The notes beneath the pieces are model-generated. The model saw nothing but the letters and a program-made list of their open reading frames with translations, was not told where the DNA came from and did not search any database. Below are positions 1 through 29,870 of a DNA stretch of 29,870 nucleotides, one piece after another. The stretch comes from a virus. The position numbers and the translations under genes are program-made. The stretch's first letter is position 1; each line of letters starts with the position of its first letter. The DNA lies in the IMG/VR virus record IMGVR_UViG_3300006969_000021, positions 1 through 29,870 of that record, one strand, 5' to 3'.

Positions 1-647
1 AAGCAGGTATTCAGTACTTTCTTAAGCATATGACCCGTAATATGCCTGAGGAGCTTATCATGCAGTTACAGGACCGCATTAAGATTGTACCGTTAGGAGA
101 GCCATTCGATGTCCTCGATCCTGTTAAGCAGGCAGTCTTACAAGCATACATCGAGAAGCACGAAATCGAGGTTCTATTCCTCGATAGCTTGGGGCGTATT
201 ACTGTTAAGTCTCTCAACAGTGATGAAGATACCAAGACGTTGTTCGACTTTGACTCGAAGCTTCGTAAGAAGTTTGGAATCGCTACTTGGCATGTACATC
301 ATAACCGCAAAGCCACGGCACAAAATAAACAACCTAAGACTCAGGATGATGTCTATGGGTCTGTTTACATCACTGCTTCTGCGACTGACGTTTACGCCTT
401 ATGGTCAAAGGACACAGTAAACACAGACATTAAATTCATCAATCTTAAGCATAGGTACTCCGAGCAAGAGCGTGAGTATGGCGTAGCAACAGGCCAGAAT
501 CTTATGTTTGCAGTACAGACAACCGCTCAACGCAGACTTGCAGCTAGTACGGAGGTTAGCGATAGTGGACTCATTAACTCCCGCGACATCGACGATGACG
601 AGCCTGAGCCGCCCACCCAGGGATATAACATCGGGCTTAGTTTCTAG
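1..647 (+). CDS. RecA/DnaB-type ATPase, C-terminal part (cut by window edge)
   Basis: The reading frame is open from the first complete codon (base 3) through the first ATG at base 30, so this is the 3' end of a gene that starts outside the window. Visible features are a hydrophobic strand ending in an acidic residue (EVLFLDSLGRI), which fits a Walker B motif, and a later TWHVHHNRKA segment like the His/Arg sensor of RecA-fold helicases and RepA-type (AAA_25) ATPases. Walker A must lie upstream. Its place in front of the polymerase genes suggests a replicative helicase or recombination ATPase. The acidic C-terminus overlaps the exonuclease start by 53 bases. DnaB-like, RepA-like and Sak4/RadA-like ATPases cannot be told apart from this half. 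Confidence 0.72.
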   Translation, partial: AGIQYFLKHMTRNMPEELIMQLQDRIKIVPLGEPFDVLDPVKQAVLQAYIEKHEIEVLFLDSLGRITVKSLNSDEDTKTLFDFDSKLRKKFGIATWHVHHNRKATAQNKQPKTQDDVYGSVYITASATDVYALWSKDTVNTDIKFINLKHRYSEQEREYGVATGQNLMFAVQTTAQRRLAASTEVSDSGLINSRDIDDDEPEPPTQGYNIGLSF

Positions 648-1239
648 TCGTACAGGATTCGAGGCCGTTCTTAACGAAATGATTAGGGCTCCACGAGTCT
701 ATTGTGACACAGAGACTAGTCAACTTGGAGACTACAAATCTAAAGAACGTGCTAGAGCTAGTGCTATATGGGACAGTCGTGTCTATGCCACCGGTATCGG
801 TATAGGTTGGAAGATTGATGGTATTCGTAATGAGTTCTACTTACCGTGGCGACATGATGTACCTGACAAACATAATTTACCTAAGCTTTGGTTACCTGAG
901 TTCAAAGAAATATTCGAGACCAAAGAGATAGTTGTACACAACTACTTGTATGACCATCCTTCATTACTAACATTAGGCATAACCATTCCTGAGGATACCT
1001 ATTGGGATACAATGGTTATGGCTCACATGGTTAATGAAGAGTTTCCCTCCAAACAACTCGATTGGCTAGCCAAGTTCGTTCTTAAAGACGACGGCAAGGA
1101 CAAGGAACAACTTAATCAGTTTCTTAAAGCTATGACCTGGCAAGAAGTTCCACCACAAGTTATGGCACCTTACTGTTGCAAAGATGTGAACATGACTGGC
1201 AGGTTATGGGAGGTGTTTATCAGTGAGCTTAAGCCTTGA
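595..1239 (+). CDS. 3'-5' exonuclease domain of a split family A DNA polymerase
   Basis: DEDDy-type exonuclease that would proofread for the polymerase encoded 240 bases downstream. Visible are Exo I (VYCDTETSQ, with Asp and Glu), Exo II (VVHNYLYDHPSL, Asn and Asp) and Exo III (YCCKDVNMTGRL, Tyr and Asp), in the usual order. No polymerase motifs follow; the frame stops soon after Exo III. The ATG at 595 is chosen because the helix before Exo I (FEAVLNEMI) must be included. It has no clear ribosome binding site and sits inside the upstream gene, so translation is probably coupled. The stop overlaps the next gene, whose GTG lies at 1223. Confidence 0.85.
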   Translation: MTSLSRPPRDITSGLVSSRTGFEAVLNEMIRAPRVYCDTETSQLGDYKSKERARASAIWDSRVYATGIGIGWKIDGIRNEFYLPWRHDVPDKHNLPKLWLPEFKEIFETKEIVVHNYLYDHPSLLTLGITIPEDTYWDTMVMAHMVNEEFPSKQLDWLAKFVLKDDGKDKEQLNQFLKAMTWQEVPPQVMAPYCCKDVNMTGRLWEVFISELKP

Positions 1240-1510
1240 AGAAGCCGAGGAACTAGCTTACAATCTTGTCACACGCAGTGAGATAGCTGGTAGGTTAAAC
1301 GTTCATCTACGTACTATGTACGGATGGGTTGAACGACGAGAGCGTAATAACTTCGTTAAACCGTTACGTAAGATTAGCGGTGGTGGAGCAGGGGCACCCT
1401 TTGAGGTTTACTGGTGGCCCGATGTTAAAGAGTGGTATGACACCTATATCCCACGGAGAGGACCTAAGGTAAATAATGGGGCAAGACCTGTTACACCTGT
1501 GGGAAAGTGA
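1223..1510 (+). CDS. Small helix-turn-helix protein between the two polymerase halves
   Basis: 95-aa protein with a GTG start preceded by a good ribosome binding site (GGGAGGTG, 1208-1215). Residues about 17-40 (VTRSEIAGRLNVHLRTMYGW) read as a helix-turn-helix of the MerR/excisionase (HTH_17) kind. A later VYWWPDVKEW segment is typical of the end of such winged domains, where it follows the recognition helix. It overlaps the exonuclease gene by 17 bases and the polymerase gene by 35 bases, so all three are probably translated together. It could be a DNA-binding accessory factor of the polymerase, a small regulator, or a degenerate inserted gene. The sequence does not decide between these. Confidence 0.7.
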   Translation: MSLSLEEAEELAYNLVTRSEIAGRLNVHLRTMYGWVERRERNNFVKPLRKISGGGAGAPFEVYWWPDVKEWYDTYIPRRGPKVNNGARPVTPVGK

Positions 1511-2693
1511 AAGACGCTTTCTCAATGTTCTGTCTAAGGTAGGTAGTCGTGGGCTTAAAGCGGATTTGGATAAGTGTGCAGTCTTATCAGAGCAAGCGGA
1601 ACAAGAAATGGAAACTCGTAGAGTTCGGCTTGGCTTTGATCCTGGGTCTCGTCTTGACCTCGAACGGGTCCTCCTTACCGAACTCAATCTTCCTGTAGTT
1701 CTTCGCTCTCCTAAGACTGGTAACCCTAGTTTTAACAAAGTCGCTATGGCTGAGTACGACGTTATGCTATCAGCTATGGGCAGTCAAGTAGCACAAGATA
1801 TCTTGGCCTACAGGGGGTGGCAGCAAGCTAACAGTTTCTACTATGCTGGTTACCCTAGAATGGTAAGTCCTGATGGAAGAGTACGACCTAACTATAAGCC
1901 AACTGGCACAAGAACTACAAGACTCTCCTGCGAGTTGCCCAACTTACAACAAATACCCCGTAGATCTGATAAACCCTGGTCTGGCCCGGTCAAATCCTTA
2001 TTTATACCTACCAACGAGGATTGGGTACTTTGGGATTTTGACTATGCCAGCCTGGAATACCGAATCGCTTTATTTTATGCGGGAGAAACCGAACTCATTG
2101 AACGAGTTAATTCTGGAGCAGATTTCCATGAAGTCACTGCCGATCTCATTTACGAACAGACCGGAGTCAGATTAACTAGATACGATGCTAAGCAGATGAA
2201 CTTCGCTATTGTGTACGGCGCAGGAGCGGAGAAGTTAGCTTACATGCTTAAGTCAACAAGGGATGAACATAGTGGAAAGGCAGCCGATGACCAAGTTGCT
2301 AAACTCATCAAAGCTTATCATACTGCTTTCCCCGGCTTCCGTCGCACTGCTAGAGACGTTGCGAAGGTTGCTAAGTCCCGAGGTTATGTTAAGCTTTGGA
2401 CAGGCCGCCGCCGCCATTTTAATAGCATCTTTAATCGTGGAAAAGAGAAGGACGCCTGGAACTCCATCTGCCAGGGAGGCGGCGCAGAAATCGTCAAACA
2501 CGCAATGTTGAGACTTAACGACCAAGTCGATAACCGAGATTGCAAGATGGTCTTACAGGTTCATGACTCAGTAGTGTTTGAGATTCGTAAAGAAAAGCTA
2601 CCCTACTATAAGGAAACCATCAGACAAATCATGGAAGATAACCCGCAGTTCCCGGTTAAGTTCCATGTGGAGGATAAGCAATGGGCGACTTAA
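1476..2693 (+). CDS. Family A DNA polymerase, polymerase domain
   Basis: 405-aa stand-alone polymerase domain. It has the TTRLSCELPNLQQIP segment (147-161), motif A DFDYASLEYR (catalytic Asp189), motif B RYDAKQMNFAIVYG (Arg235, Lys239, Phe243, Tyr247) and motif C QVHDSVVFE (His363, Asp364). Motif C reads HDS where HDE is usual; the metal-binding Asp is kept. Phe243 is in the position of Phe762 of E. coli Pol I, a state reported mostly for virulent phages. At about 405 aa it lacks the exonuclease and 5'-nuclease regions, and the exonuclease is encoded separately upstream. The ATG at 1476 lies 14 bases after GGAGAGG. The end overlaps the MazG-like gene by 13 bases. Confidence 0.93.
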   Translation: MGQDLLHLWESERRFLNVLSKVGSRGLKADLDKCAVLSEQAEQEMETRRVRLGFDPGSRLDLERVLLTELNLPVVLRSPKTGNPSFNKVAMAEYDVMLSAMGSQVAQDILAYRGWQQANSFYYAGYPRMVSPDGRVRPNYKPTGTRTTRLSCELPNLQQIPRRSDKPWSGPVKSLFIPTNEDWVLWDFDYASLEYRIALFYAGETELIERVNSGADFHEVTADLIYEQTGVRLTRYDAKQMNFAIVYGAGAEKLAYMLKSTRDEHSGKAADDQVAKLIKAYHTAFPGFRRTARDVAKVAKSRGYVKLWTGRRRHFNSIFNRGKEKDAWNSICQGGGAEIVKHAMLRLNDQVDNRDCKMVLQVHDSVVFEIRKEKLPYYKETIRQIMEDNPQFPVKFHVEDKQWAT

Positions 2694-4434: not shown

Positions 4435-4488
4435 AACCGACCTCCTTCCCTCTTGACACCATGATGCACCAGGGAGGGGGCATGGATC

Positions 4489-4517
4489 AACCCCCGGACT
4501 CAGAAAGTCCGGGGGTT
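4489..4517. terminator. Perfect 12-bp hairpin between lysis block and whiB-like gene
   Basis: AACCCCCGGACT (4489-4500) and AGTCCGGGGGTT (4506-4517) pair perfectly around a CAGAA loop. On the minus strand it follows the last late gene (ends 4534) and precedes the WhiB-like gene, so it can end late transcription. On the plus strand it lies beyond the replication block and is followed by TTCT. It probably works in both directions. Confidence 0.85.
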
Positions 4518-4533
4518 TCTCCATAGAAACCGC

Positions 4534-23640: not shown

Positions 23641-23862
23641 TTATCGGTAAACCACGAACCCGAAAAACAGGATCGGAGCGAAAAGCGTAGACGTGATGAA
23701 CATAAGCGCAATGCCTGTGTAAACTAAGAGTCTAAAATTAACTTCTTTACGACGTCTACGTACCCAATGGCCACAACCAGCCATAGTACATCCACCACAC
23801 AGCCCACCTTGCATAGTATAGTGGTCTTTGTGTTTAAATTCGTAATACCTCGGCCATACCAT
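23641..23862 (-). CDS. Small Cys-containing membrane protein
   Basis: 73 residues from the ATG at 23862, which shares its A with the TerL stop (TAATG) and has AGGTGA six bases upstream; an ATG two codons earlier is less well placed. It has a CGGCTMAGCGHW cluster at about residues 22-33, then a basic stretch (RRRRK) and a single long hydrophobic segment (LLVYTGIALMFITSTLFAPILFFGF). Topology by the positive-inside rule puts the Cys cluster in the cytoplasm. Function unknown; it is not next to the lysis genes. Confidence 0.6.
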   Translation of the reverse strand: MVWPRYYEFKHKDHYTMQGGLCGGCTMAGCGHWVRRRRKEVNFRLLVYTGIALMFITSTLFAPILFFGFVVYR

Positions 23863-25598
23863 TACCATTCACCTACTGGCTCTGTAGTCCACTCTGTCTT
23901 ACTATCGAAGTTATCGTACTCTCCCCAACCCCCTGCTCGCTGGTTAGGATTAAGCTTAGCTGCTAGCTCATGGTCGATCTGATTTTCAGGTTTCGCGTAA
24001 ACCTTAGAAGCTCCTACAGGGCTAACCTGAATGGGAGTCTCTATCTTAATTAAGTCCTTAACTAACTGCTCAAAGTTAGGAAACGCCATAGCGCAGTAAC
24101 GTAGACTGTCCATAGCGTGATCGTCTTTCTTACGCGGAGTCTCCTTCTTGTTATGCTGACGCTCCGCACCTTTCTGAATCCACTCAGCCCAACGGTAACG
24201 GCCGGCTTCCCAAATGGTTTTCTCACAACGTTGGTAAACTGACCAAAAGGACCTTAAGTCTCCAGTAACCGGGTCCTGCCAGATAGGCTTCATAAAAGCC
24301 TTTACTCTGTCGATTCCGGTTTCCACGTCGTTAAGGCCAGGGGACGCATTGATAAGGATACCAAATTTGGAGTATTCTTCGAGAATTGAAGTCTTAGTGA
24401 TCGGGTCTGTATTTCTAATGGATGGGTCGCCAACGTAAAAGTCAGGCTGCCGTCCGATTCTTCTGTTGATTTCAAGGACTTTAAGGGCATGTTCTCGAAC
24501 AACAAGTCCCTTCTGGTACCATTCCCAGAAAGTAACGAGTCGCCCGGTAGGTAAAATAGCGTGCCAGAGCCAAGCAGTGGGGTTAGTAAATCCATGATCT
24601 AAACTCGCAATAATTGTAGCGTTACTTAAGTCTGGCAACTCACCTTGATGGTGCTTAATAACGTGAGTATCTCGGTCGAACTCCTTATAGATAAGACCTG
24701 TCTTAGCTACGTACTCACCTTCAACTCGGGTATCTGCCCCACCTTCACGTTTACCTAAGATTGCTCGGAGTACGTCTACCTCTTCGTCCTCAATCCAAGG
24801 GTTATCTGCTGTGCTAGCTGTAACCACTACGACTGTGAACGGAGCCTCACCCTTAAGTGCAGGCTCGTAAAGATCATCGAAGGTCCAAGTCATACCGTCA
24901 ACAGGAGTTAAAGTGAACCAGGCACGTCCTCCGGTATCTGTAAGACGTGCCATATTTTCATCGTAAACTTCTTCTGGCGGCTCTTCATCAAAATGAACAA
25001 AATGCCGTGAAGTTCCCGCGTGCTTATTGAGTTGTTGATCATAAGATCGGAGTTCGATAAATCCTTCGTTAGCGAAATTAAGAGTTCGTTCCTCTGCGTC
25101 CCAGGCACTATCCCAAGTGCCCCCTCTAAGCTCACTAGGAGGAATCCAGCGTTTAAGGGCGGGGATGATAATGCCTTGGCCGCCATTAATAAAGTCCGTT
25201 GTGCAAATGCGGCCCCTAATAGGCTCGGGCCAGATAGCGTTAATGTCAATATAGGGGTGCGTCTTAGTGACCCACCATATATCTTCCACAATTCCGCCGA
25301 CCGTCTTGCCAGATCGGTTACCTCCGACATAAAACCTCACCTTAGCTATGTATGACTTATTGAGAATCCGGTTATGGATCACCATGTCGATACGGCCGAG
25401 TTTAGCTAGGTTAACTCCATGCTCCATACCAGTACCCCAAGGCTCTACAGGGAGGGTGTCTGAGCAATGGAATCTAGCTTGCTTAATGTTATGCCGGTAT
25501 CCTAAGATGTTCGGCTCTATGGCAAGCTTATTTAGACGCTCAGCAATGAGTAACTTGCCGGTGTCTAACTTAAACTCTTCGGGCTTTTTACGAGGCAT
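23862..25598 (-). CDS. Terminase large subunit
   Basis: 578-aa packaging motor from ATG 25598, which overlaps the upstream gene by 11 bases (a TTG frame from 25628 is possible). ATPase: Walker A GGNRSGKT (92-99) and Walker B HFVHFDEEPP with Asp204/Glu205. Nuclease: SLDHGFTNP (Asp334), FYVGDPS (Asp391) and KDDHAMDSLRY (Asp497), the three acidic positions of the RNase H-like domain. It cuts concatemers and drives DNA into the portal. Together with the small subunit two genes upstream it forms the packaging pair. The basic start (MPRKKPEEFK) and absence of long insertions are as usual for the family. Confidence 0.93.
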   Translation of the reverse strand: MPRKKPEEFKLDTGKLLIAERLNKLAIEPNILGYRHNIKQARFHCSDTLPVEPWGTGMEHGVNLAKLGRIDMVIHNRILNKSYIAKVRFYVGGNRSGKTVGGIVEDIWWVTKTHPYIDINAIWPEPIRGRICTTDFINGGQGIIIPALKRWIPPSELRGGTWDSAWDAEERTLNFANEGFIELRSYDQQLNKHAGTSRHFVHFDEEPPEEVYDENMARLTDTGGRAWFTLTPVDGMTWTFDDLYEPALKGEAPFTVVVVTASTADNPWIEDEEVDVLRAILGKREGGADTRVEGEYVAKTGLIYKEFDRDTHVIKHHQGELPDLSNATIIASLDHGFTNPTAWLWHAILPTGRLVTFWEWYQKGLVVREHALKVLEINRRIGRQPDFYVGDPSIRNTDPITKTSILEEYSKFGILINASPGLNDVETGIDRVKAFMKPIWQDPVTGDLRSFWSVYQRCEKTIWEAGRYRWAEWIQKGAERQHNKKETPRKKDDHAMDSLRYCAMAFPNFEQLVKDLIKIETPIQVSPVGASKVYAKPENQIDHELAAKLNPNQRAGGWGEYDNFDSKTEWTTEPVGEW

Positions 25599-25824
25599 AG
25601 TTATAAATCCAAATACGTCCGCTACCAAGAACTCTTGTTACACGGTAAGTACAGGCAATCACTGAGGGTACAGTAGGGTCTACTCCTTCAACCCTAGTAT
25701 CCGTTGCAGAGATAGGTAACGGAAGGCGCCTTGTTTTAGGAGGAAGTTTATCATCCTCATTGACCTCTAATACGTCTATCCTACCATCATGAGGTCCGCC
25801 GTAATATTTTAATTCAACCTTCAT
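25588..25824 (-). CDS. Small conserved-type phage protein (YYGGPHDG motif)
   Basis: 78-aa protein. It starts MKVELKYYGGPHDGRIDVLE; the YYGGPxDGR motif is seen in many short phage proteins of unknown function. Two more beta-like stretches (VIACTYRVTRVL, RIWIYNY) follow a linker rich in Pro. It starts one base after the upstream stop and overlaps TerL, so its translation is coupled with TerL. No catalytic residues are recognised. Confidence 0.65.
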   Translation of the reverse strand: MKVELKYYGGPHDGRIDVLEVNEDDKLPPKTRRLPLPISATDTRVEGVDPTVPSVIACTYRVTRVLGSGRIWIYNYAS

Positions 25825-25825
25825 A

Positions 25826-26599
25826 CTACCAAGCTCCGTTAATTACGAACTTACGACTAGCAATTTGAGGACCTGGAATCTGAGGCACAATCGTAGTAGC
25901 TAAACCGGCAGAGTCAATCTTCTGCGGGTGTCGGCGTACGACCTTAAAGAACGTAATGTGTCGTCCGTTGTTAATGGTAAGGTTCCCACCGGAGTTCTGA
26001 AAGGATTGTATCTTCCACTGGTGTCCTACTGACATCTGAATTCCCATCATAAAGTCCCAGGCTCTATACGGATCAGTAGCCGTAGATAGGTTTTCAGCTG
26101 TCTGAGTTACTGCACCGTCCTCCATGATACGGACACCTCGCTTACCTGTAGCGTTAGCAGCGAAGGTCACCCGAGCAGTAATGTCAGCAACGTGTTCCTT
26201 AAGGACAACAAAAGTCTGAGAGTCGATCTTGGCGTAGAATTCCTTATCCCAAAACTTGTAAGCCTGGAAGCTAGTGTCTACGTAGTTGCCGGCAGAGTTA
26301 TGCGAACCGTCTGTGTCTTTATACAGCCATAGTCCGATAAGCCGGTGGGAATGGTCACCTGGCGCGGCTTGGTTATTTCCAGGACCTAAAGAGTGGTGTT
26401 TAGCTTGAGCACCGGAATCAGTATCCGCCGAGTTATGTAACGCACGAACCTTCTCAGCATCCCACTCTAGGTCTTTACGCTTACGGTCCTTGTCACCCTT
26501 ACCTTTACTATCCTGCTTATTGGAAGGATGGTAAACGTGAGGTACTTGGTGAGGGACTTGACCTAGCGGACCCTTACCACTAGAACTAGACTCAGGCAT
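25826..26599 (-). CDS. Structural protein with C1q/TNF-like C-terminal domain
   Basis: 257-aa protein. The first 85 residues are disordered: Ser/Gly/Lys-rich, then LGPGNNQAAPGDHSH, a Gly/Pro/His linker type common in tail-fibre and head-fibre proteins. Residues about 90-235 look like a beta-sandwich (VVLKEHVADITARVTFAANA, GVRIMEDGAVTQTAENLS, GHQWKIQSFQNSGG, HITFFKVVRR), much like C1q/TNF-like trimer domains. Such domains bind receptors or stabilise fibres. The place between the two terminase genes is unusual. A receptor-binding or head-fibre role is the best guess. TAATG overlap with TerS. Confidence 0.6.
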   Translation of the reverse strand: MPESSSSGKGPLGQVPHQVPHVYHPSNKQDSKGKGDKDRKRKDLEWDAEKVRALHNSADTDSGAQAKHHSLGPGNNQAAPGDHSHRLIGLWLYKDTDGSHNSAGNYVDTSFQAYKFWDKEFYAKIDSQTFVVLKEHVADITARVTFAANATGKRGVRIMEDGAVTQTAENLSTATDPYRAWDFMMGIQMSVGHQWKIQSFQNSGGNLTINNGRHITFFKVVRRHPQKIDSAGLATTIVPQIPGPQIASRKFVINGAW

Positions 26600-27366
26600 T
26601 AGTAGCCCCTAGGTAACTCGGGAGGTCCCGCGCTGACCCCAGAGTGGAGAATCTGGATACCGGAACGGTTAACACTATTGATAATCTGCTGACCGATACG
26701 TTGCGCGTCCTCAGGGGTTAAGTTAGCGATGAGGATGTCGATGATTTGGTTAACCATCAGCTGGAAGTTAACTACTTGCGGGTCCTGTGGACGGTAACGA
26801 CCAGTCTTTTCGTTAAAATACTTGATGGACTGGATGTCACCAGCACGTACGTTATCCCCGAGTGCTCTATCAGCATCTACAGCAAGGGAGGCTTCTAGCT
26901 TAGAGGCGCGGGCTGCGTAGTATTCTCTAAAGACTGGATCGGCGTTCCATACTTGGAACTCTTCCTTGGACACGCCGGCATCTGATAACTTTTTGTGATC
27001 TGGCGTAAGGTCGTTAACGTTGAGTAAGGAGTTAACCAGTTGTAATTGGCGGCCGGTAAGAAGTGGTGCCGGCGCACCTTCGTTACCCTCGTCTGGCGTG
27101 GCGCTATCAGGTAATCTAACAGGAATAGACCTGGCTGCCAAAGCCTGACGTATTGGAGGGTAAGTCCAGTACTCTCTCCATTGCGCTTCGGAGATTGTAA
27201 GGTGTTCACAAGTAATATCATAGTCAGGAAGTCTTTCGTGGAGCATGTAGTATTGCTCGACCCATAGGATGAACCCTAACTGGTGCTCGTTAATCCGAGT
27301 GTCTTTGTCTAACTGCTCGGATGTCCACTTAGCATCTGTCTTGGGCTTAAACTTAGCGTTTGTCAT
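26599..27366 (-). CDS. Terminase small subunit
   Basis: 255-aa protein. An N-terminal domain (EHQLGFILWVEQYYMLHERL, then LTISEAQWREYW) and a central domain beginning LTGRQLQLVNSLLN read as helix-turn-helix. The central part continues with FQVWNADPVFREYYAARASK and SIKYFNEKTGRYRP, the pattern of the phBC6A51-type small terminase, in which a DNA-binding head is followed by a ring-forming helix. It selects the phage DNA for TerL. The start overlaps the regulator gene by 14 bases. Confidence 0.8.
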   Translation of the reverse strand: MTNAKFKPKTDAKWTSEQLDKDTRINEHQLGFILWVEQYYMLHERLPDYDITCEHLTISEAQWREYWTYPPIRQALAARSIPVRLPDSATPDEGNEGAPAPLLTGRQLQLVNSLLNVNDLTPDHKKLSDAGVSKEEFQVWNADPVFREYYAARASKLEASLAVDADRALGDNVRAGDIQSIKYFNEKTGRYRPQDPQVVNFQLMVNQIIDILIANLTPEDAQRIGQQIINSVNRSGIQILHSGVSAGPPELPRGY

Positions 27367-27925
27367 ATAAGTGTCTCCACATCACGTTAGCTTCCCGAAG
27401 GTCGATAATGTGCTGCGTCTCAAAACCGGTATCCCTTAACCATTCTCGTAACTGCTCGGGGACCTCGAACGTTTTACCCGCTTCAAATCTACGGACGGTA
27501 GAGGGATGTAAGCAGAAGGCAGTACAAAACCCGAGGATACTTTGACCGTAACCACTTTGAGTACGGTGCCACGTAAGAGGGTGCGACTCCACTTTGGGGA
27601 TGTACGGGTAGTGGAACGCAAAGGGTTGGACGGTTTGAGAGTACTTACGGTACGCCGTAACGTATTCGCTGTACTCAGCTTGCAAACGTCCTGCCGTATA
27701 ACGAGGGTCCAAACGTTCGAGCGCATGAACCATTGCACCTGGTATCTTACGATAAGTACCTTGCTCTGTTCGGACGACGGTCTTATCGCTAACGCCAGCA
27801 CGGCTAGCAAAAGTACTAACACCCAAGTCATAAGATAACCTTAAGCTCTTGACGATGTTGGTCGGGACGGGTGTCAAGTCATCCCCGGACCCGGCGGGAA
27901 CGTCCACCGCCTCTGACCTGCTCAT
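27353..27925 (-). CDS. Regulator with two helix-turn-helix domains, leaderless start
   Basis: 190-aa protein. HTH 1 lies at about residues 28-70 (FASRAGVSDKTVVRTEQGTY) and HTH 2 at about 118-165 (SILGFCTAFCLHPSTVRRFE, then AGKT); both have the Xre/Cro spacing, the second very clearly. A linker with several Tyr separates them. There is no ribosome binding site: the -10 box ends six bases before the ATG, so translation begins at or next to the first base of the mRNA. It is the first gene of the late block, next to a palindromic divergent promoter; TGTCAAGTCA occurs inside it at 27872. It likely controls early/late expression and perhaps its own promoter. Confidence 0.72.
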   Translation of the reverse strand: MSRSEAVDVPAGSGDDLTPVPTNIVKSLRLSYDLGVSTFASRAGVSDKTVVRTEQGTYRKIPGAMVHALERLDPRYTAGRLQAEYSEYVTAYRKYSQTVQPFAFHYPYIPKVESHPLTWHRTQSGYGQSILGFCTAFCLHPSTVRRFEAGKTFEVPEQLREWLRDTGFETQHIIDLREANVMWRHLYDKR

Positions 27926-27931
27926 ATATAG

Positions 27932-27960
27932 AGTATGACAGACACTTGACTCCGAGTCAA
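27932..27960 (-). promoter_or_regulatory. Late-block promoter, leaderless
   Basis: Minus strand TTGACT (27960-27955), 17 bases, CATACT (27937-27932), then CTATAT and the ATG at 27925. The transcription start would fall at the ATG. The -35 box is one arm of the palindrome at 27945-27961. Confidence 0.65.
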
Positions 27961-27961
27961 G
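27945..27961. promoter_or_regulatory. 17-nt palindromic operator at the divergent promoters
   Basis: CTTGACTCCGAGTCAAG is a perfect inverted repeat (eight-base arms around one C). Each arm supplies the TTGACT -35 box of one of the two divergent promoters, so a dimeric repressor bound here would block both at once. Confidence 0.75.
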
Positions 27962-27974
27962 TCCGTAGTAGTAT
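27946..27974 (+). promoter_or_regulatory. Early promoter for the right-hand plus-strand genes
   Basis: TTGACT (27946-27951), 17 bases, TAGTAT (27969-27974). It is followed by AAGAAAGGAGGT and the ATG at 27997. Spacing and boxes are close to the primary sigma-factor consensus of actinobacteria. Confidence 0.75.
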
Positions 27975-27996
27975 TATTTAAGAAAGGAGGTAAGAA

Positions 27997-28221
27997 ATGT
28001 CTCAGCTCAGTAACCCTAAAGGTTTAGAGGGTGACAGTCGGGACCGTTTACGAGCCTTAGCCTACAGGGGCGAAAGGGTAGCTGGGCGGTTCGTGTTAGA
28101 GGGTGAGGACGCTCACTATCTTAAGGTTATCGCAGCAGAGCGTAACATGACTGTGGATGCCCTTGTTAAACAGTTCGCTATTGAAGGCTTGTGGCGAGCC
28201 CGTACATTTAAGGAGCTATAG
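27997..28221 (+). CDS. Ribbon-helix-helix-like small protein
   Basis: 74-aa protein with a very strong ribosome binding site (AAAGGAGGT). Residues about 30-65 read as a short beta strand (RFVLEG) followed by two helices (DAHYLKVIAAERN, TVDALVKQFAIEGLW), the Arc/CopG arrangement. It is the first gene right of the divergent promoter and carries one CTACAGGG copy (28072). An early regulator is likely. It could act on the palindrome, competing with the two-HTH protein, but no evidence for that is visible. Confidence 0.65.
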   Translation: MSQLSNPKGLEGDSRDRLRALAYRGERVAGRFVLEGEDAHYLKVIAAERNMTVDALVKQFAIEGLWRARTFKEL

Positions 28222-28223
28222 CT

Positions 28224-28442
28224 ATGATGTGCTATGAGTGCTTACAAAGCTTGAATAACCCACCTATGAGTGATAGCGATTACCTGTTAATGAAGGGGGA
28301 TGTTAACTTAGGTGTCATCGTAGTTACACATGCTAACGGGTATGCTATCTACACTATGCACGCACAAGGATATGAGTGGGATAAAGATAACAAGGTGTGG
28401 AAACTCAAAGAGCCATATGGAGGCAAGGTGAGTAAAGGGTAA
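28224..28442 (+). CDS. Small CxxC protein of unknown function
   Basis: 72-aa protein with AAGGAGCT upstream of ATG ATG at 28224. Starts MMCYECLQSLNNPPMSD, a CxxC pair with no visible second pair. The rest is beta-like (DVNLGVIVVTHANGYAIYTM) with a Trp-rich end (YEWDKDNKVWKLKEP). Two bases separate it from the ribbon-helix-helix gene, so both are probably one message. No family is recognised. Confidence 0.6.
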   Translation: MMCYECLQSLNNPPMSDSDYLLMKGDVNLGVIVVTHANGYAIYTMHAQGYEWDKDNKVWKLKEPYGGKVSKG

Positions 28443-28714: not shown

Positions 28715-29647
28715 ATGACCGAGCAGACCAACGTCACGCCCGACGCCGAGGATGAGCAGGCTACGGCTGACGTTACCGAAGAGCAGGCTACCGATGAGCA
28801 GGCTATCGACGCCGACGTTACCGACGCCGAAGAGGGTAGCGAGGATGAGGCTACCGACGAGGACGCTAACGAGGACGAGGCTAGCGAGCCTGGTCCTGTC
28901 GAAGAGCAAGAGTGGTATGACGATGTCTTTGACATCCTGTTCACTCGTGCGCTTAAGCTTGCGACTGCCGTTAACGATGAGGTCGCGTACCTTAACGCTA
29001 ACTCCAGTGACCTGCTGACCGTTGTCGAGAGTGTCGAGCAGGACAACAGCGACGACAAGGTCAAGGCAGCTAACGACCGGATCGAAGAGCTTAAGTCCGA
29101 AGTCCTTAAGCTTGAGTCGCTTCGCCGCGACTACGCGATGGGCAAGGCTAAGGCGCTTATCGCAGAGCGTAAGGATGACGACACGATCAAGGCTCACACT
29201 GAGACGCACGCTAAGGCGCGTACCGCGTGGCGCGATTACGTCAAGGTGTTCAAGTCTAACTACCCGGGCGCCGACCTTACGCCGTATCTTCCCGAGGTCA
29301 AGAACCTTAGCCGCTCCGGCGGTAAGGGTAAGGGTGAGGGTGGCCAGCGGTTGCGCGGCTTCGTTCTCTGGACAGTCGATGGCACCAAGGTCGGCACGAC
29401 TAGCAAGGGTGTGTTTAACAGCACCGCTAGCGATGCCGCTAAGGCAGCCGGTATCGACCTGTCCGAGCTTCAGAACGAATACAAGCGTATCAACGGCGAT
29501 GACTCTAAGTCCTGGCCGCGCGTCAGTAACTTTGAGTTCAAGGGTCACACGTTCTCCGCGCAGCGCGAGGACAAGGACGCGGCTAAGACTAGCGCCGATG
29601 TCAGCCCCGCGAACGTCGAGAGCACGAACGGGCAGGCTACCAGCTAA
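28715..29647 (+). CDS. Highly acidic coiled-coil protein
   Basis: 310-aa protein, with GGAGAGGA before the ATG. Residues 1-68 are nearly all Asp, Glu, Ala and Thr and hold nucleotide-level repeats: GAGCAGGCTA three times and GACGTTACCGA twice. Residues about 70-175 are charged helices (VKAANDRIEELKSEVLKLES). A compact domain (RGFVLWTVDGTKVGTTSKG, DAAKAAGIDLSELQNEYK) follows at about 215-285. The codon use is richer in G/C-ending codons than in neighbouring genes. The separate leader and strong terminator suggest high expression. The acidic start could mimic DNA and occupy host DNA-binding proteins, but this is conjecture. Confidence 0.7.
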   Translation: MTEQTNVTPDAEDEQATADVTEEQATDEQAIDADVTDAEEGSEDEATDEDANEDEASEPGPVEEQEWYDDVFDILFTRALKLATAVNDEVAYLNANSSDLLTVVESVEQDNSDDKVKAANDRIEELKSEVLKLESLRRDYAMGKAKALIAERKDDDTIKAHTETHAKARTAWRDYVKVFKSNYPGADLTPYLPEVKNLSRSGGKGKGEGGQRLRGFVLWTVDGTKVGTTSKGVFNSTASDAAKAAGIDLSELQNEYKRINGDDSKSWPRVSNFEFKGHTFSAQREDKDAAKTSADVSPANVESTNGQATS

Positions 29648-29760: not shown

Positions 29761-29870
29761 ATGGAACGCCGGTACACAACTCCACACCACGCCATCCTTA
29801 ACTTCCACTCTTACGCCTATTCCTTAAGTCCTAACGTACAGTTTCGTCTAGGCAAACAGTCTACTACGTA
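29761..29870 (+). CDS. Start of a possible gene, cut by window edge
   Basis: From the ATG at 29761 the frame stays open to the end of the window (36 complete codons, MERRYTTPHHAILNFHSYAY, then SLSPNVQFRL). There is no ribosome binding site, and the preceding sequence TTAAGTTAAGTGT could hold a -10 box, so a leaderless start is possible. Residue usage looks natural, but the length is too short to be sure. No family can be named. Confidence 0.4.
   Translation, partial: MERRYTTPHHAILNFHSYAYSLSPNVQFRLGKQSTT

What the first reader, a model, noticed from the sequence alone, without database searches (positions are those of the whole stretch)
27926..27996. Interlocked divergent promoters on a perfect palindrome, one leaderless
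CTTGACTCCGAGTCAAG supplies the -35 box of both the early (plus) and late-block (minus) promoter. A single dimer bound to it would switch both. The minus promoter's -10 ends six bases before the regulator's ATG, so that message has essentially no leader, while the plus promoter drives a gene with a very strong ribosome binding site. The two directions are thus likely to differ in how they are translated.
Basis: partly seen in the sequence, partly recalled or inferred. Interest (0 to 1): 0.6.

Follow-up and report, generated by a model that had tools for sequence, protein, structure and literature searches.

The report
Phage's two-way switch, one gene leaderless
In a soil phage, probably of actinobacteria, two promoters pointing in opposite directions share one symmetrical DNA site, and the message for the late-side regulator is predicted to start at its own start codon, a design that recurs across many related phages and would let one binding event choose the direction of transcription.

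Summary
The palindrome is 19 bp (27944-27962) and supplies TTGACT -35 boxes to two back-to-back promoters, each with a 17-bp spacer. The minus -10 (CATACT) ends six bases before the regulator's ATG, so that message is predicted leaderless. The plus gene has the longest Shine-Dalgarno match of 34 window genes checked. Comparison lifts this above coincidence. The closest lineage (L004/L005; regulator 36% identical) keeps the divergent gene pair, the 15-bp interlock and the CTTGAC/GTCAAG half-sites; there both genes look leaderless, whereas the window has 22 rather than 6 nt between the plus -10 and the ATG, carrying the Shine-Dalgarno. Of 56 family regulators, 34 have a leaderless-type promoter (24 score >=14; 0.6 expected; 2 of 336 downstream genes). 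The regulator is predicted to hold two Xre-like HTH domains; the partner looks like a ribbon-helix-helix protein, on weak evidence. Best reading: a mutually exclusive promoter pair, the shared site probably being the operator of one or both encoded proteins. Which protein binds, and when, is inferred. Overlapping divergent promoters and leaderless phage regulators are known; this is a new variant.

The parts
27944..27962 (.). 19-bp perfect palindrome (9-bp arms, 1-bp centre); shared -35/putative operator
   Evidence: CTTGAC/GTCAAG half-sites and 15-bp interlock conserved in L004/L005
27946..27951 (+). -35 TTGACT of plus promoter
27969..27974 (+). -10 TAGTAT of plus promoter (17-bp spacer); start inferred near 27981
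27981..27991 (+). Shine-Dalgarno AGAAAGGAGGT of the plus gene
   Evidence: longest match of 34 genes
27997..28221 (+). 74-aa putative ribbon-helix-helix protein, first gene of the plus (early-type) block
   Evidence: 48% identical divergent homologue in L004/L005; Pfam Antitox_RHH E 0.043, below cut-off
27955..27960 (-). -35 TTGACT of minus promoter
27932..27937 (-). -10 CATACT of minus promoter with upstream TG (17-bp spacer); start inferred at the A of ATG, 27925
27353..27925 (-). 190-aa regulator, two Xre-like HTH domains predicted; predicted leaderless; first gene of the late/structural block
26599..27366 (-). second gene of minus block, small-terminase-like
   Evidence: phrog_24579 E 7e-5
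23862..25628 (-). terminase large subunit, hook for the family search
28224..28442 (+). 72-aa plus-block gene, no family
28715..29647 (+). 310-aa acidic protein; homologue further along the divergent side of L004
   Evidence: BLASTP E 4e-11

Best explanation
The 71-bp gap holds two SigA-type promoters that diverge from one symmetrical site, so that each takes its -35 box from one half. SHOWN in sequence: the overlap, the 17-bp spacers, the leaderless geometry of the regulator, the strong ribosome site of the plus gene, and conservation of this plan in related phages. FOLLOWS from geometry: the two polymerase sites overlap by 15 bp, so only one side should be occupied at a time. INFERRED: the palindrome is also the operator for the tandem-HTH regulator, the ribbon-helix-helix-like protein, or both, and one binding event there blocks or tips both directions. 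INFERRED: the plus side drives early/replication genes and the minus side the structural genes, with the regulator made first from a leaderless message whose translation does not depend on a Shine-Dalgarno. The pair would thus act as a one-site toggle between early and late transcription.
For: Geometry. Chance: 0 of 20,000 shuffles for both window and L004. Conservation: L004/L005 keep the gene pair, 15-bp interlock and half-sites; both L004 promoters end 6 nt before an ATG. Family: 34 of 56 regulators score >=12 as leaderless and 24 of 56 >=14, against 5.4 and 0.6 expected from shuffles, and 15 and 2 of 336 downstream genes; -10 to start codon 6 nt in 29 of 34, spacer 17 in 24 of 34; Shine-Dalgarno >=5 nt in 0 of 34. 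Named phages Jasmine and Adat show TTGACA-17-TACGGT-6-ATG on the matching gene. The label clusters on the TerL tree: 9 changes, shuffled mean 17.6, 0 of 500 as low. Regulator model pLDDT 91.5 with a similar helix order twice; N-terminal domain like 434 Cro/P22 c2 (Z about 8). Gene content: minus TerL, portal, major head; plus helicase part, exonuclease, DNA polymerase A at the left end.
Against: No binding or transcript data. Six of 9 palindrome pairs are the -35 boxes themselves. The interlocked palindrome is seen only in the window's lineage and L004/L005/L034: of 56 stretches matching the architecture pattern in viral contigs, only these four contigs carry this gene pair in my reading of the list (in L034 the partner gene is cut by the contig end). 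22 of 56 regulators, including those of phages Shocker and DS1, do not reach the leaderless threshold. The ribbon-helix-helix call for the window protein is below cut-off, and its searches against solved structures found nothing significant. The window is probably a partial genome, so the join of the plus block to the replication genes is not seen.
Confidence: 0.66

Rival explanations
1. The palindrome is only the by-product of two overlapping -35 hexamers; control is by polymerase competition (or by a host or unlinked factor) and no phage repressor binds there.
For: Two facing TTGACW boxes give 6 of the 9 pairs. Most family members have a leaderless-type regulator promoter without such a palindrome.
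Against: The flanking C/G outside the hexamers is also kept in L004/L005, so the conserved unit is CTTGAC/GTCAAG, and the sixth base of the box changes on both sides together (T/A to A/T). Two putative regulators are encoded on either side.
Confidence: 0.3
2. The regulator is not leaderless: its true start is a downstream GTG (codon 7) or its transcript starts further upstream.
For: In-frame GTG and TTG codons follow; homology to L004 begins some way into the window protein.
Against: The -10/6-nt/ATG spacing recurs in many of 34 of 56 relatives and almost never at other genes of the same loci; no Shine-Dalgarno precedes the ATG.
Confidence: 0.1
3. A lysogeny switch of the lambda CI/Cro kind: the leaderless HTH protein is a prophage repressor and the ribbon-helix-helix protein its lytic opponent.
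For: Divergent leaderless repressor genes are known in PY54 (PMC4488713, passages). The HTH domain resembles phage repressors.
Against: The HTH gene heads the structural operon, an odd place for a lysogenic repressor. No integrase was found among the 20 window proteins searched in Pfam and PHROGs, but not every ORF was searched and the genome is probably partial.
Confidence: 0.15

Closest known systems
Cluster O mycobacteriophage (Corndog) divergent promoters PL1/PR2
   Same: Divergent SigA-like promoters in one intergenic region, both predicted to give leaderless mRNAs (PMC4351075, section 7 read).
   Different: The section read describes no shared -35 palindrome and no regulator pair; no sequence relation was tested.
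PY54/N15 telomere phage cI-cro region
   Same: Divergent regulator genes, each with a single leaderless mRNA species mapped by RACE (PMC4488713, passages).
   Different: Enterobacterial temperate phage (recalled for the host); the cro promoter lies up to 40 bp from the operator; nothing in the passages puts the regulator at the head of a structural operon.
Tn10 tetR-tetA overlapping divergent promoters
   Same: Overlapping divergent promoters controlled through palindromic operators (reference title and tetO passages in PMC11686294; details recalled).
   Different: Operators and promoter overlap differ; a single self-encoded repressor; no phage early/late role (recalled).
Arthrobacter phages Jasmine and Adat (Jasminevirus)
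   Same: Homologous regulator upstream of TerL with a leaderless-type promoter.
   Different: No interlocked palindrome reported upstream of it by my scan; annotated only as hypothetical protein.

Membership tests
Leaderless gene (promoter -10 placed so that +1 is the start codon) | -10 ends about 6-7 nt before the start codon, with a -35 at 16-18 nt | tested here: met
   recurs in 34 of 56 relatives
Leaderless gene (promoter -10 placed so that +1 is the start codon) | mapped 5' end at the start codon | not testable with these tools
   no transcript data
Overlapping divergent promoters with one shared operator (tetR/tetA-like) | promoters overlap so that polymerases exclude one another | tested here: met
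   27932-27960 and 27946-27974 overlap; same interlock in L004. Overlap tested; exclusion itself not measured
Overlapping divergent promoters with one shared operator (tetR/tetA-like) | a regulator encoded by one arm binds the shared palindrome | not testable with these tools
   no binding data
Xre/Cro-CI HTH regulators | HTH_3/HTH_31-type domain | tested here: met
   14 of 14 aligned members hit HTH_3 and HTH_31 at E<=0.1; the window protein alone is below cut-off (20.9 vs 27 bits); model similar to 434 Cro, Z 8.2
Xre/Cro-CI HTH regulators | second HTH domain in the same chain | tested here: inconclusive
   helix order repeats in a pLDDT 91.5 model, but no HTH-type Pfam profile matches the C-terminal half of the window protein
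Ribbon-helix-helix (CopG/Arc) proteins | family profile match | tested here: inconclusive
   window protein Antitox_RHH E 0.043 below cut-off; same-place L027 protein passes RHH_3, 28.1 vs 21.6 bits
Ribbon-helix-helix (CopG/Arc) proteins | strand-helix-helix fold | tested here: inconclusive
   model has two strands then two helices, pLDDT 68.5; no significant fold match, Arc at rank 26 with E 4.2

The most novel reading that the evidence does not exclude
A family-wide early/late toggle of soil actinophages in which a single-chain two-HTH protein and a ribbon-helix-helix protein compete for one palindrome that is also both -35 boxes, and in which evolution tunes the balance by switching either arm between leaderless and Shine-Dalgarno translation (window: regulator leaderless; L004: both; L027: partner leaderless), so that the ribosome's state as well as repressor binding feeds into the choice.
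Probability: 0.25. Interest if true: 0.68.

Novelty: new variant of a known kind. Interest (0 to 1): 0.52.

Why it matters
Leaderless translation is common in actinobacteria (recalled), but why a given gene is leaderless is rarely clear. Here many phages of one clade keep one regulator leaderless-looking while most of their other genes are not, and three lineages show three states of one two-armed switch. That makes the question 'what does losing the leader buy?' testable with a short DNA fragment and two small proteins. It also gives an unannotated gene of cultured Arthrobacter phages a likely role.

Tried and rejected
Nucleotide and protein searches of the phage collection with the switch region, regulator and partner found no relative (one search gave 4 records at E >= 0.9, judged chance); plasmids none. 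The regulator alone found only the second contig of the same phage, and L010's regulator only itself, so the family was reached through TerL. A last scan with the partner protein added no new lineage. The first architecture scan had the spacing 4 nt too long by my error; its 100 stretches were ignored. The corrected scan gave 56 stretches; most of those with an ORF at the ATG encode unrelated proteins. The idea that the 310-aa plus gene is an Lsr2-like protein as in Jasmine was not supported (E 0.37). The idea that the palindrome is a repeated operator was dropped: no second copy. A direct link of the plus block to the replication genes across the ends was not shown: no end repeat. The second HTH half was not folded or searched alone.

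Count details: 58 distinct regulators, the window's included, plus 4 from 5 fetched named records (L166 gave none) make 62; six were dropped (L006, L031, L112, L149: N-terminus missing or out of frame; L020, L109: too little upstream sequence), leaving 56, which include near-copies L004/L005, L133/L135, L029/L046, L162/L165. The score weights and thresholds are mine; the best of several in-frame starts was taken, and the shuffles were treated alike; for downstream genes up to three starts were allowed.

Full report
WHAT IS THERE. The window is a 29,870-base viral record. Its minus strand carries a structural block (P22-type portal, large terminase, major head protein). Its plus strand carries a short block from 27997 to the right end and, at the left end, part of a helicase, an exonuclease, a family A DNA polymerase and others. 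The two blocks diverge from a 71-bp gap, 27926-27996, the region in the finding. The record is probably partial: relatives such as Jasmine and DS1 are about 46 kb, the first ORF matches only part of a helicase profile, no end repeat was found, and a second contig of the same phage (99.95% identical over 9,584 bp) runs on for 5.8 kb beyond window position 29783.

OBSERVATION CHECK. All the stated elements are present. The palindrome is one base longer on each side than stated (27944-27962). Two promoters share it: plus TTGACT-17-TAGTAT and minus TTGACT-17-CATACT, the latter with an upstream TG. The minus -10 is six bases from the regulator's ATG. In 34 window genes checked, the plus gene has the longest Shine-Dalgarno match and the regulator none. 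In 20,000 shuffles of the gap, 17 gave a 9-bp-arm palindrome and none an interlocked promoter pair. A palindrome of this length somewhere in 30 kb would not be unusual (about one per shuffle, 20 shuffles). The only other perfect one with arms of 8 or more and a gap up to 5 lies near the convergent end of the two blocks, at 4489-4517.

COMPARATIVE EVIDENCE, CLOSE. The nearest lineage (L004, L005, and L034, whose regulator is the same as L004's; TerL 57%, regulator 36%) has a divergent 76-aa homologue of the plus gene (48%). Its 55-bp gap keeps the CTTGAC/GTCAAG half-sites and the same 15-bp interlock, while the sixth base of each -35 box changes on both sides together. There both promoters end six bases before an ATG; in the window the plus side has 22 bases instead, and these hold the Shine-Dalgarno. 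On the TerL tree the window groups with L004/L005 (SH-aLRT 100) and then L007 (98), all with leaderless-type regulators.

COMPARATIVE EVIDENCE, WIDE. A profile of the regulator found 58 distinct homologues, the window's included, among the loci fetched through TerL, and one in each of 4 of 5 phage records. Of 56 that could be scored, 34 reach 12 of 18 points for a promoter placed to give a leaderless message and 24 reach 14. Shuffled upstream regions predict 5.4 and 0.6. Among 336 downstream genes of the same loci, 15 and 2 reach these scores. The gap between -10 and start codon is 6 nt in 29 of the 34 and 7 in the rest. None of the 34 has a Shine-Dalgarno of 5 nt or more, against 10 of the other 22 regulators and 155 of 336 downstream genes. 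Jasmine and Adat are among the 34; Shocker and DS1 are not. The trait is clustered on the TerL tree (9 changes, shuffled mean 17.6). On the divergent side, small proteins that look like ribbon-helix-helix proteins have leaderless-type promoters (score 13 or more) in 9 of the 56 by my reading (L004, L005, L011, L024, L027, L111, L125, L132, L148); of those I scanned in Pfam only L027's passes a cut-off. L027 is the mirror image of the window: abutting -35 boxes (TTGACTTGTCAA), partner leaderless, regulator with a leader. The interlocked palindrome itself was found with this gene pair only in the window's phage and in L004/L005/L034.

PROTEINS. The regulator model is confident (pLDDT 91.5) and shows a similar order of helices twice: four short helices and a long one. 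The first half resembles 434 Cro and P22 c2 (Z about 8, a range in which chance matches also occur) and has Pfam HTH support across the aligned members (14 of 14 at E <= 0.1). The second half is an HTH by pattern only. A chain with two such domains could bind a palindrome without dimerising; that is inference. The plus protein's ribbon-helix-helix assignment is tentative.

HOST. Named relatives infect Arthrobacter, Microbacterium and Cellulosimicrobium, and the two genome hits are a Streptomyces contig and a Solirubrobacterales bin. An actinobacterial host is likely, which fits efficient leaderless translation there (recalled), but it is not shown for this phage.

MECHANISM. Most likely the site is a one-position choice point. 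The two polymerase sites overlap, so use of one should exclude the other. A protein on the palindrome would cover both -35 boxes. The regulator, first gene of the structural block, and the partner, first gene of the other block, are the natural candidates. Which one binds, whether it activates or represses, and the timing are open.

COMPARISON AND NOVELTY. Divergent leaderless phage promoters are described for cluster O mycobacteriophages (PMC4351075, section read) and mapped in PY54 (PMC4488713, passages). Overlapping divergent promoters with palindromic operators are classical (tetR/tetA; reference list and passages of PMC11686294). Nine literature searches were made in an open-access library; none listed a paper that, by title and abstract, treats this phage family's switch. 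What is new is the combination: shared -35 palindrome, opposite translation signals on the two arms, and wide conservation of a leaderless-type gene at the head of the structural block.

Noticed in passing
window 4489-4517 (arms 4482-4524): Strong inverted repeat between the convergent ends of the plus and minus blocks, probably a two-way terminator.
   Followed up: partly
window 27848-27878: Two further CTTGAC-type half-sites, facing each other 25 bp apart inside the regulator's first codons; with the palindrome this gives 4 in 114 bp against 23 in the whole window. Could be a secondary site or chance.
   Followed up: no
window 508-2693: Exonuclease and polymerase parts of a family A DNA polymerase are on separate ORFs.
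   Followed up: no
window 29784-29870: The last 87 bases do not match the second contig of the same phage, which is otherwise 99.95% identical and continues for 5.8 kb.
   Followed up: partly
L276, L277, L302, L267, L278 (pattern hits): Unrelated phage contigs with a small HTH protein whose -35 lies in a TTGAC-N5-GTCAA palindrome with a -10 six bases before the ATG: a possible independent case of the same design.
   Followed up: no
L011, L027, L032, L132, L148, divergent side: The gene after the small divergent gene reads like a DNA methyltransferase (TSPPYPG motif, recalled), in place of the window's 72-aa and acidic proteins.
   Followed up: no
L160: A 46-kb Streptomyces griseosporeus contig carries the TerL and the regulator; its length suggests a whole phage or phage-plasmid.
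   Followed up: no
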